The position numbers and the translations under genes were made by a program. 64,000 nucleotides of DNA from Microthyrium microscopicum. Taxonomy: Eukaryota > Ascomycota > Dothideomycetes > Microthyriales > Microthyriaceae. The DNA lies in the NCBI GenBank assembly GCA_010405405.1, contig MU004230.1, positions 951,744-1,015,743 of the forward strand, read 5' to 3'. Each line of letters starts with the position of its first letter. Within the stretch, counting starts at the first letter, position 1. The notes beneath the pieces are model-generated. The model was not told the origin of the DNA, did no database searches, and saw only the letters and a program-made list of their open reading frames with translations. This document shows, piece by piece, positions 60,434-64,000 of this stretch.

Positions 60434-63110
60434 TCAACCACTAGGCCCTGCACAAGGCTGGATAGGAGCAAACATGCCATGATATTCCACGATGAAATCA
60501 AGTGCCTCTCCATACTGTCGTTTAAATTCATCCGGCGTCTTGATCCACGATAGATGAGTTACAGTACTAGGACAAAGGTTTGAGCTAGAGGGTCTGTGCA
60601 CCCCCCAGGTATCCCAAATTACCATTTTGGTTATTAGCAATTTACTAAGTAACCATAATGGTTATCTAGACGGTTTTGGGATCAAATTGAAGCTAAAAAT
60701 TAGGCCGTTTTAGCCTATATTGAGATTTGGTGAAGTTGTAGTTCTAGTACTTAGTATGCTACCCGTTGGCGTTAATTACTACCTAGCACTTAGCTTACAT
60801 ACTCTTAATATAATTTAAAATCCTATCTTCCTTTAGGCAATCCTATATGTCTAAAATATATTCCTTAAAGTAGGTAATATCTATGGCTAAAGATCCTTAG
60901 TGTCTATTAAGTTCTAAATATCATAAATATAGCTATTCTTTGAGTTAAGTCTAGACGTGTTTAATTAGGTTTAAATTAGGTAAGATAGGTAGCTATTAAA
61001 GAGTTATAACTCTATAATCTCTAAACTAATTTTGAATAAGGTAAGCTATATAAATAGAGGTATTATCCTATTAGTAAATTATATTATCCTAATAGTAAGG
61101 AAGGTAGTTCTTATTAAGAACTTTAAAATAAGAATGAGTAGAATATCTATTTCTTGCTAAATCTAGGTCCCTATCTATAACTACTATTTCTATTCTTTTA
61201 AGGTATAAATTAATAGCGGCTTATATTATAATTAAAATGTTCTTTTCTTTAGAATACGTCTAAATATAATTTAGAAGCTATTTTTAGTATAGTTGTTAAA
61301 AAACTTAAGTTCGTTATTTACTCTTTCTTCGTTTAATAGAATACTTATTACTAAACTAAACTTATAACTACTCTAAGAGCGACTATAATATATAATTCTT
61401 AGTAAATTGTAAGTATTTAGCAGTATACTCTTCTATTAACTTAGGACGTTCTTTTGCGCGCTATTTTTTAATATTTTAGACTGCTAAATTCTATTAGATT
61501 ATCTTATAACTATAATTTAGATCTAAGTCCTTTATAAGCTACCTATAGGTTAATTTTAGGTAAGCCTTTATCTTTTTTATTATATAGCGTAAATCTCTAT
61601 CTAATAAGGACTTATTATGGCCCTTTTTTAGCTTTATTAAACTATCTTCTAGTTATTAGCCGCAACGTAGTTTTGTTATTAAGATTATTAATTCTAGGAT
61701 GTTTAAGACGCGGGATATTTTAGAGAAACGGTAACTAAAATCCAGAACGCTATAAATCTTATTTTAAGTAGCATCTAAAAGCTGCTTTCGGCCTCTATTA
61801 GGAACACTAATTTCTAAGAGAATTCCCCTTGTTTAGCAAGGCATAGTTATGGATGAAGATAATAGATTAAAAACTAGGGACGCGTTTTGAAAGGGTGTGT
61901 GCACGGATCAGCTCAAACCTTTGTCCTGGAACTGTAACCCATTCGGCGGGTCGTCGTTATCAATTCTTTGGTCGATGGGGCAATTCATTCCCAGTTCCGA
62001 AATGCCCATTAACTCCATGTCGAACAGCCTTGGTCTTCCTACGAAGTGGTTGAATTCAGCAAGCCCTTTCTGTGCTTTCCAAGGAAAAAGCTCATCGGCA
62101 CCTGTGAAAACAAGGTACACTGGTATCTTCTTCCTGCAAATAGCCCGAACTGGATCCTTATGCAAAAACTGTTCCGTTTCGATGGTCCTAAGTGCAGAGC
62201 GATTGAGTGACATCTTTCGTGGCTGGATGCTGACTCCACCGAATTCCATAGAAAAGGGGATGCTGCCTCCACAAAGTTCTTTGAGCTTCGCCTCTATTAC
62301 ACAGTTTGAAGAACCATCCACTTCACGCAAACTTTCGGAGTCGAAGTCCTGCTCGTAATCGAAGACTAGTCGAGCACTGGGGTCCAAGATGTTTTTATCA
62401 TCAATTCTGGACTAGCTTTTGTTAGAACATGTTGCTCCATGACCATGGGAAAAAGTGCTCATGGACATATAGTTCCAACTTATCAACCCAGTCCTTCTGC
62501 CATCGATATCCATTTCTTGCAAGTACTCGGACTTGTTTGAAGTTGATCGATGTGCCCCATCGACCATCTGTGTGAAATAGCCAGCCGCCCCAGCTGATCA
62601 CACCCACTACCGGACACTTTGTCCAGTCATCCGCCCATTCAGCCTGCGTTATATCAGTATAAGAAATGCTCATGTGCTCTCACGTTATCAAGATGGTATT
62701 GTGATGGCCGTTGAGTGTACGAAAGCCATCGAGACTTATTGGTTCATGTGATATTGTCTTTGGTTAGATAAGTTCTTTCTTACAAAGCTTACCTCTGGAT
62801 CAAGTAAGGCATTGAAACCAGGTAGAACCGAATATCCGACCAGCACGAGAATAACGTTGGCTTCTGCCAGTTTCATACTCTCTAGCTGATGCCCAAGTAC
62901 TTGTCTGTCCGCTTCCTGAGGTACACTCATGGCGCCTTGTTCTAGACTTGGCAGAGTCAAGAACTTTATTCTCTTGGGCTTATAATTCACATAGAAGCCA
63001 AAGCCACCAGGATAGTTGAGGAAGTTCTCGGCTGCAAAATGGGGCGGACCGACTACAAGGAGCTGATAGTCGGTTTCAAGAAAATCGTACTTCATCCCGG
63101 AAAAGTTCCT
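60434..63110 (-). pseudogene. Paralog B of an unrecognised family, interrupted by a DNA transposon
   Basis: Exons on the minus strand: 63110-62793 (likely start ATG 63095, MKYDFLETDYQLLVVGPPHF), 62643-62467, then 62411-60434 interrupted by the element at 60562-61934. The first exon reads like an alternating beta/alpha nucleotide- or ligand-binding fold (YQLLVVGPPHF, EANVILVLVGYSVLPGFNAL), the second contains CPVVGVISWGGWLFHTDGRW, and the third VYLVFTGADELFPWKAQKGL. It shares TGADELFPW and NGLTHLxW with paralog A at 63451. Without the element and one TA the third exon is a continuous frame through NGLTHLSWIKTPDEF to the stop at 60434. I do not recognise the family. The intron before 62411 has a weak GTCCAT donor but a good CTAAC branch site. 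Confidence 0.75.
60562..61934. mobile_element. 1,373-bp Tc1/mariner-type DNA transposon, RIP-decayed, inserted in paralog B
   Basis: Terminal inverted repeats: left CAGTACTAGGACAAAGG..., right (reverse complement) CAGTTCCAGGACAAAGG...; 23 of the first 25 bases agree and GTGCAC matches further in. Both ends are flanked by TA (60560-60561 and 61935-61936). The body is almost entirely A/T with very frequent TpA, the pattern left by RIP, and no long frame survives. On the minus strand near 61560-61630 a stretch reading SLLDRDLRYIIKKIKAYLKL, then TYRQLIKDLDL if one stop is read as Gln, recalls the second helix-turn-helix of Tc1 transposases, and the length suits a full Tc1/mariner element. Its ends differ from those of the MITE at 8087 beyond the first four bases, so it is not that MITE's obvious source. 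Confidence 0.88.
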
Positions 63111-63450: not shown

Positions 63451-64000
63451 TCACTTATTGTATCCAGGCACAATATGATCCAGAGCATCATACAGTTCGT
63501 TGTCAAACTGTTCGGATGATTTGAGCCAAGCAAGATGAGTCAAGCCATTGATGGGTGCTATGTCATCATTTCCATCAAAGACTTGATAGTTCGTGTTTAG
63601 TGTTGAATCGACTTTGCTCTTTTTGCCTATCAATCCATGCTTCAACGCAAGCTCTCGTTGCGCCTCCCAAGGGAAGAGCTCGTCCGCTCCAGTGAGAACT
63701 ATTCGGGTGGGAAATTTCCTGGCGAGTTCTCCAAGCGTGGCTTTCTTCAGAAATTTTGCGTCTTCGACGTGAGCGCTTGCTCGCACAAGTTTCCAGTCCT
63801 GCTGGCCTGCCATGTGCCAAGCGGCTGCTGAGCTACCAAATAGTCCTTGGATCTTCGCGTCTTCCTTCTGTATGTCTTCAGAGAGGGTAGCTGTCGATTG
63901 GTTCAGCACTCTGAGCCTACCCATGGCCTCGACTGAAGACTACTTAAACGTTAGAACAGTCTCTACTTCTGCTTAGGAAAACGGGAAACTTACATATCGA
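63451..64000 (-). CDS. Paralog A of the same unrecognised family (5' part beyond window)
   Basis: The last exon runs 63932-63451 and an upstream exon ends at 63994, continuing off the right edge; the intron between has GTAAGT and TTCAG borders. About 162 residues are visible. Landmarks shared with paralog B are TRIVLTGADELFPWEAQREL and APINGLTHLAWLKSSEQF, with a C-terminal helix LYDALDHIVPGY. There is no transposon in this copy, so it serves as the reference for the intact C-terminus. No catalytic motif recognised; TGADELFPW is the most distinctive string for a database search. Tandem arrangement on one strand suggests local duplication. Confidence 0.78.

What the first reader, a model, noticed from the sequence alone, without database searches (positions are those of the whole stretch)
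60434..61936. Transposon insertion exactly splits a coding codon run; removing it plus one TA gives the paralog's frame
The element 60562-61934 is flanked by TA on both sides. The host sequence on the minus strand reads ...AAT GGG T, then TA, element, TA, then ACTCATCTATCG. Joined over a single TA this is AAT GGG TTA ACT CAT CTA TCG TGG = NGLTHLSW, and paralog A has NGLTHLAW at the same place. This defines the target site to the base and shows the gene was intact when hit. The element is RIP-degraded while the flanking exons are not visibly so, which bears on how far RIP spreads.
Basis: partly seen in the sequence, partly recalled or inferred. Interest (0 to 1): 0.72.

Follow-up and report, generated by a model that had tools for sequence, protein, structure and literature searches.

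The report
Tc1 transposon interrupting a fungal gene
A common kind of jumping gene, crippled by mutations typical of a fungal defence, has landed in and split one of two side-by-side duplicate genes; this is ordinary, though its two surviving copies differ oddly in one part of the enzyme they encode.

Summary
Window 60562-61934 is a 1373-bp Tc1-type DNA transposon: inverted ends of 41-45 bp, TA on both sides, and a minus-strand transposase relic full of stops. It lies in the last exon of a minus-strand gene (B, 60434-63095). The two host pieces meet at adjacent residues, 281 and 282, of tandem paralog A, in one frame, with a single TA counted. RIP-like decay is strong inside the element and absent from both flanks.

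Two inferences go too far. (i) 'Intact when hit' is not shown: B's second intron has donor GTCCAT where A has GTAAGT, and no empty-site allele could be examined. (ii) The bearing on RIP spread is limited, because the order of RIP and insertion is unknown.

One other full-length copy was found in the assembly (C2, 81%). Between the two copies the catalytic region differs almost only by transitions, but the N-terminal part of the transposase is strongly diverged, and both end repeats share two or three parallel differences; a mosaic origin is possible. A/B gave no convincing match in Pfam or solved-structure sequences; their function is unknown.

The parts
60434..60559 (-). Gene B, 3' part of the last exon: 41 codons plus stop, downstream of the insertion
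   Evidence: begins at paralog A residue 282; 0 of 5000 shuffles reach the score
60560..60561 (.). Target-site duplication TA (left)
60562..61934 (-). Tc1-type transposon, 1373 bp, RIP-degraded; transposase sense is the minus strand
60562..60606 (+). Left terminal inverted repeat, about 45 bp
61894..61934 (-). Right terminal inverted repeat, about 41 bp
61575..61844 (-). Transposase relic, codons 31-120 of the element frame: N-terminal region, the part that differs by many transversions from the C2 copy; 4 stop codons
60819..61574 (-). Transposase relic, codons 121-372: HTH_Tnp_Tc3_2 remnant (codons 116-181, below curated cut-off in this copy) and catalytic region, 28 stop codons
61935..61936 (.). 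Target-site duplication TA (right)
61937..62411 (-). Gene B exon 3, upstream of the insertion; as it stands it reads on into the element for eight codons to a stop at 61908-61910
62412..62466 (-). Gene B inferred intron 2, 55 nt, donor GTCCAT, acceptor TAG
   Evidence: same phase and place as paralog A's intron (donor GTAAGT)
62467..62643 (-). Gene B exon 2 (inferred)
62644..62792 (-). Gene B inferred intron 1, 149 nt, GTAAGC...CAG; no counterpart in A
62793..63095 (-). Gene B exon 1 from the ATG (inferred)
63451..63939 (-). Paralog A exon 2 with stop; its exon 1 lies almost wholly beyond the window (L008 5994-6437)

Best explanation
A DNA transposon of the Tc1 kind (one transposase with a DDE_3 catalytic domain, inverted ends, TA target) inserted by cut-and-paste into a TA in the last exon of gene B, one of two tandem, diverged paralogs in what appears to be a filamentous fungus. 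Insertion duplicated the TA and split the reading frame inside a stretch shared with paralog A (NGL/THLxW). The predicted product now ends eight residues into the element, losing its last 41 residues. Repeat-induced point mutation, or a process with the same C-to-T-at-CpA signature, destroyed the transposase and is not visible beyond the element's edges. Shown: ends, TA duplication, frame continuity with A, transposase family of the second copy, RIP-type composition and its confinement. Inferred: RIP as the process, the fungal host (RIP-like signature, introns, genome size), loss of B's function, insertion before RIP, gene B functional beforehand.
For: Ends and TA duplication; second full-length copy on C2, 81% identical over 1373 bp, also bounded by TA. 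In the C2 copy, read with stops as X, HTH_Tnp_Tc3_2 scores E=1e-16 and DDE_3 E=9.4e-11, both above curated cut-offs; the window copy gives only HTH_Tnp_Tc3_2 at 5.5e-4, below cut-off. 32 stops in codons 31-372 of the window copy, 13 in C2; of the 19 window stops absent from C2, 15 stand at CAA, CAG or TGG codons of C2. 91 of 149 CpA/TpG sites of C2 read TpA in the window copy, against 7 of 63 in the other direction. Frame continuity with A. Flank composition at background.
Against: No empty-site allele seen, so the pre-insertion state rests on one paralog that is about 42% identical over the first part and 33% over exon 2/3. B's intron-2 donor is poor, so B may have been failing before the insertion. 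RIP needs repeats; only one other full copy was found, at 81% identity, near the 80%/400-bp limit quoted for Neurospora in PMC3017866 (passages), so partner copies that drove such heavy RIP may be lost, or the element was mutated elsewhere first. RIP genes and a sexual cycle were not looked for.
Confidence: 0.9

Rival explanations
1. The copy was already RIP-mutated elsewhere and was moved into gene B in trans by another element's transposase. Then the sharp RIP edge says nothing about how far RIP spreads from this locus.
For: The end repeats are better preserved than the interior. A 607-bp locus with no recognisable transposase but with matching ends and TA flanks exists on C9, so ends alone appear to have been mobilised in this family. 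All 13 stops of the C2 copy in codons 121-372 are also stops in the window copy, against 14 of 20 still unmutated candidate codons, Fisher p=0.035.
Against: The window copy is near saturation for RIP in its middle, and both copies may share hot sites; p=0.035 is weak and the test was not planned beforehand. RIP after insertion also fits.
Confidence: 0.25
2. Gene B was already a decaying pseudogene when the element landed, so the insertion disrupted nothing functional.
For: Donor GTCCAT at the intron shared with A; none of 7 GT dinucleotides in the 149 nt up to the acceptor fits GTRNGT.
Against: All 359 codons examined are open. With 45.0 expected stops per substitution per site, neutral drift of more than about 0.067 substitutions per site is unlikely (3/45, a Poisson bound with ts:tv 1:1 assumed and RIP ignored). 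Non-consensus donors can work, and the donor may have decayed after the insertion.
Confidence: 0.25
3. The composition of the element is an original AT bias of the family, not RIP.
For: The C2 copy is also AT-rich (GC 0.393), and so are the loci around the three partial matches (GC 0.378-0.389 with flanks).
Against: Differences between the two full copies are directional: 159 transitions with A/T in the window copy against 34 in the other direction, 92 of the 159 at CpA/TpG.
Confidence: 0.04

Closest known systems
Fungal Tc1-like elements of the impala type (recalled; impala papers seen only as reference entries)
   Same: About 1.3 kb (size of impala recalled), inverted ends, TA target duplication, one transposase frame that aligns with the C2 copy with a single compensating pair of 1-base gaps in the coding part, DDE_3 catalytic domain in the C2 copy, and 34 residues between the second catalytic Asp and the Glu as counted by eye.
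   Different: No impala sequence was compared; family-level assignment was not tested. Both full copies are broken by stop codons.
RIP-degraded Tc1/mariner elements such as Molly and Pixie of Stagonospora nodorum (PMC3017866, passages)
   Same: CpA-to-TpA decay of a Tc1/mariner element.
   Different: Molly and Pixie were not compared by sequence. That paper counts 18 full-length Molly copies; here two full copies were found.
RIP leakage from repeats into single-copy neighbours, Leptosphaeria maculans (PMC2973834) and Cladosporium fulvum (PMC9453070) (passages)
   Same: A RIP-degraded repeat directly adjoining single-copy coding sequence.
   Different: No leakage is visible here: the 150 bp on each side are below the background mean. 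The L. maculans paper reports RIP in single-copy regions lying less than 342 bp from upstream repeats and cites at least 930 bp in Neurospora.

Membership tests
Tc1 group of Tc1/mariner transposons | TA target-site duplication | tested here: met
   window copy; C2 copy; C9 locus
Tc1 group of Tc1/mariner transposons | Terminal inverted repeats | tested here: met
Tc1 group of Tc1/mariner transposons | Transposase with Tc3/Tc1-type HTH and DDE_3 domain | tested here: met
   Met in the C2 copy above curated cut-offs; the window copy alone reaches only HTH_Tnp_Tc3_2 below cut-off, no DDE_3
Tc1 group of Tc1/mariner transposons | DD34E spacing | tested here: inconclusive
   34 residues between second Asp and Glu counted by eye on the C2 frame; first Asp not identified
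Tc1 group of Tc1/mariner transposons | Active transposition | not testable with these tools
   Both full copies carry stops
RIP-mutated repeat | High TpA/ApT, low (CpA+TpG)/(ApC+GpT) against host background | tested here: met
RIP-mutated repeat | Directional C-to-T at CpA between copies | tested here: met
RIP-mutated repeat | Repeat partner of at least 80% identity over at least 400 bp | tested here: met
   C2 copy, 81% over 1373 bp, 84% over 780 bp of the middle; just above the limit quoted in PMC3017866
RIP-mutated repeat | RIP machinery and sexual cycle in the host | not tested
   -
Known Pfam family or solved structure for genes A/B | Significant match | tested here: not met
   Pfam: one hit (Mobilization_B, E=0.089, below cut-off), none at E<=10; PDB sequences: best E 0.5 and 1.1; AlphaFold model of A exon 2 too poor to use, mean pLDDT 41

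The most novel reading that the evidence does not exclude
The window copy and the C2 copy are a natural mosaic: the N-terminal part of a Tc1 transposase (recalled to carry the first end-binding helix-turn-helix) was exchanged together with matching bases in both terminal repeats, while the catalytic part stayed the same, that is, a transposase re-addressed to slightly different ends in nature. A 607-bp non-autonomous locus on C9 carries the window-type bases at both ends. The window copy may have moved into gene B after it was mutated.
Probability: 0.2. Interest if true: 0.5.

Novelty: new member of a known kind. Interest (0 to 1): 0.22.

Why it matters
As a gene disruption by a Tc1 element it is routine, and useful mainly as a base-exact, strain-typable insertion marker. 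The sharp edge of RIP inside coding sequence is a clean data point against RIP leakage at this locus, provided RIP followed insertion. A coupled change of the transposase N-terminus and the end repeats between otherwise near-identical elements would, if confirmed in more copies, show how Tc1 elements change their ends without losing mobility.

Tried and rejected
Empty site in related genomes: not possible; the genome search says this assembly has no relatives in its collection, and one scan of genome contigs with paralog A gave 24 pattern matches and no relative (that collection is prokaryotic). More paralogs of A/B in the assembly: none found beyond the pair with exon 2 of A and exon 3 of B as queries. 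Identity of A/B: Pfam, PDB sequences and one structure model of A exon 2 gave nothing usable. I considered an alpha/beta-hydrolase reading from the motifs TGADELFP and NGLTHL (recalled resemblance only); no call supports it and I do not claim it.

The first alignment of the two element copies used the wrong strand of L002 and is discarded; one search replaces it.

End-repeat comparison: an ungapped count over positions 11-28 (15-16 of 18 within a copy, 10-12 of 18 between copies) made the ends look strongly split by copy. With gaps allowed over the first 27 bp this is much weaker: window left against C2 left matches at 24, the same as window left against window right; C2 right against C2 left matches at 22. 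What remains is a parallel difference at positions 16 (G or A) and 19 (T or C) and one C present or absent, the same at both ends.

RIP taper towards the element ends: 9 of 41 C2 CpA/TpG sites read TpA in the outer ~200 bp of either end against 82 of 108 inside, but the end on the transposase-start side lies in the diverged patch, so only the other end (5 of 23) is a fair comparison.

Papers: PMC9453070, PMC3689807, PMC2973834 and PMC3017866 were seen as passages, PMC4188875 as abstract and outline, PMC2836289 as passages; other papers only as search listings. In two of these listings I recognised no report of a transposase N-terminus and end-repeat mosaic; this is not evidence that it is unpublished.

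Full report
What is there. The window is C1:951744-1015743 of an unnamed assembly of 36,878,185 bases in 20 contigs. At 60562-61934 lies a 1373-bp element with inverted ends (45 and 41 bp aligned) and TA on each side. The one full-length relative found in the assembly is on C2 (C2:2282064-2283436, 81% identity over all 1373 bp), also bounded by TA. Three partial matches of 66-68% identity lie on C8 (two) and C17. A pattern search with the end sequence, written to fit the ends of both copies, found 11 places with up to 3 mismatches, against 4 for the reversed control pattern; six of them are the two ends of the window copy, of the C2 copy and of a 607-bp locus on C9 with TA flanks and no recognisable transposase. 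The tool warns that its counts are lower bounds.

Kind of element. The transposase frame runs on the minus strand. Read with stops as X, the C2 copy matches HTH_Tnp_Tc3_2 (1e-16, codons 116-181) and DDE_3 (9.4e-11, codons 262-335), above curated cut-offs; the window copy matches only HTH_Tnp_Tc3_2 (5.5e-4, below cut-off). Codons 31-372 hold 32 stops in the window copy and 13 in C2.

RIP. The element has GC 0.295, TpA/ApT 1.54 and (CpA+TpG)/(ApC+GpT) 0.52 (window: 0.472, 0.72, 1.30). Between the copies, 159 transitions have A/T in the window copy and 34 the reverse; 92 of the 159 are at CpA/TpG. 91 of 149 C2 CpA/TpG sites read TpA in the window copy; 7 of 63 the other way. The 150 bp on either side have composite index -1.16 and -1.13 against a mean of -0.62 for 150-bp windows of 1-60000; at 300 bp the left flank is -0.42 (31% of background windows are as high or higher) and the right -0.97; at 600 bp -0.59 and -0.82. 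The signal is thus confined to the element and weakens inside it near its ends: the outer 150 bp at the left and right have index 0.42 and -0.04.

The interrupted gene. Gene B (60434-63095, minus) has inferred exons 62793-63095, 62467-62643 and a last exon split by the element (61937-62411 and 60434-60559). Paralog A lies upstream of it on the same strand (window 63451 to L008 6437) and was spliced at a 54-nt GTAAGT...TAG intron to 310 residues. The two halves of B's last exon, aligned to A separately, end at residue 281 and begin at residue 282. Coding phase is continuous with one TA counted. The tail's local score with A is 66; 0 of 5000 shuffles reached it. No further paralog was found in the assembly with exon 2 of A or exon 3 of B as query. 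Pfam and PDB sequence searches found no convincing relative.

The target site and frame are right. That the gene was intact is not shown: at the intron shared with A, B has donor GTCCAT instead of GTAAGT, and none of the seven GT dinucleotides in the 149 nt up to the acceptor fits GTRNGT (donor consensus recalled). On the other side, 359 codons of B are open, which limits unconstrained drift to about 0.067 substitutions per site under simple assumptions. The inference on RIP spread depends on RIP having followed insertion. The end repeats are well preserved, a locus with matching ends but no transposase exists (C9), and all 13 C2 stops in codons 121-372 are stops in the window copy against 14 of 20 remaining candidate codons (Fisher p=0.035). 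These leave room for a RIPed copy moved in trans. Leakage elsewhere is documented: in single-copy regions less than 342 bp from repeats in Leptosphaeria maculans, and at least 930 bp in Neurospora as cited there (PMC2973834, passages), and in Cladosporium fulvum (PMC9453070, passages).

Possible mosaic. On the transposase strand, positions 91-370 (N-terminal region) have 53 transversions in 280 sites and 63% identity; 371-1150 have 5 in 780 and 84%; 1151-1330 have 2 in 180 and 93% (patch against 371-1150, Fisher p about 6e-27, not corrected for choosing the patch by eye). The HTH_Tnp_Tc3_2 domain (codons 116-181) lies almost wholly in the conserved part, so only the part of the transposase before it is diverged; that this part holds the first end-binding helix-turn-helix is recalled. 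In the end repeats, both ends of the window copy and both ends of the C9 locus have G at position 16 and T at position 19, and both ends of C2 have A and C; the C of GAGCT is absent from both C2 ends (sequences, alignments). Overall, with gaps allowed over 27 bp, the ends are not clearly split by copy: window left against C2 left matches at 24, as does window left against window right. Recombination between two related families followed by matching of the ends is one reading; it rests on two full copies only.

Verdict. An ordinary Tc1 insertion with RIP-like decay, correctly spotted and located to the base. The claims about gene intactness and RIP spread need other strains. The diverged transposase N-terminus and the parallel end differences deserve a look in more genomes.

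Noticed in passing
window 60562-61934 against L009 4065-5437: Two full-length Tc1 copies that differ almost only by transitions in the catalytic region but are strongly diverged in the N-terminal part of the transposase, with parallel differences at positions 16 and 19 of both end repeats.
   Followed up: partly
L028 1033-1639 (C9:308932-309538): 607-bp locus with Tc1 ends (left 27 bp identical to the window copy's left end) and TA flanks but no recognisable transposase; a likely non-autonomous derivative.
   Followed up: partly
L009 4155-4424 (C2 copy, codons 31-120): The C2 copy has no stop in codons 31-120 while codons 121-372 carry all 13; RIP may have been limited to the part still similar to a partner copy.
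   Followed up: no
window 62644-62792: Gene B has an inferred 149-nt intron that paralog A lacks.
   Followed up: no
L008 7161-9440, minus: A 759-codon open frame upstream of paralog A contains a tandem repeat of about 22 residues (TYRVPSGSPISSDDFLAP-type), about six copies by eye.
   Followed up: no
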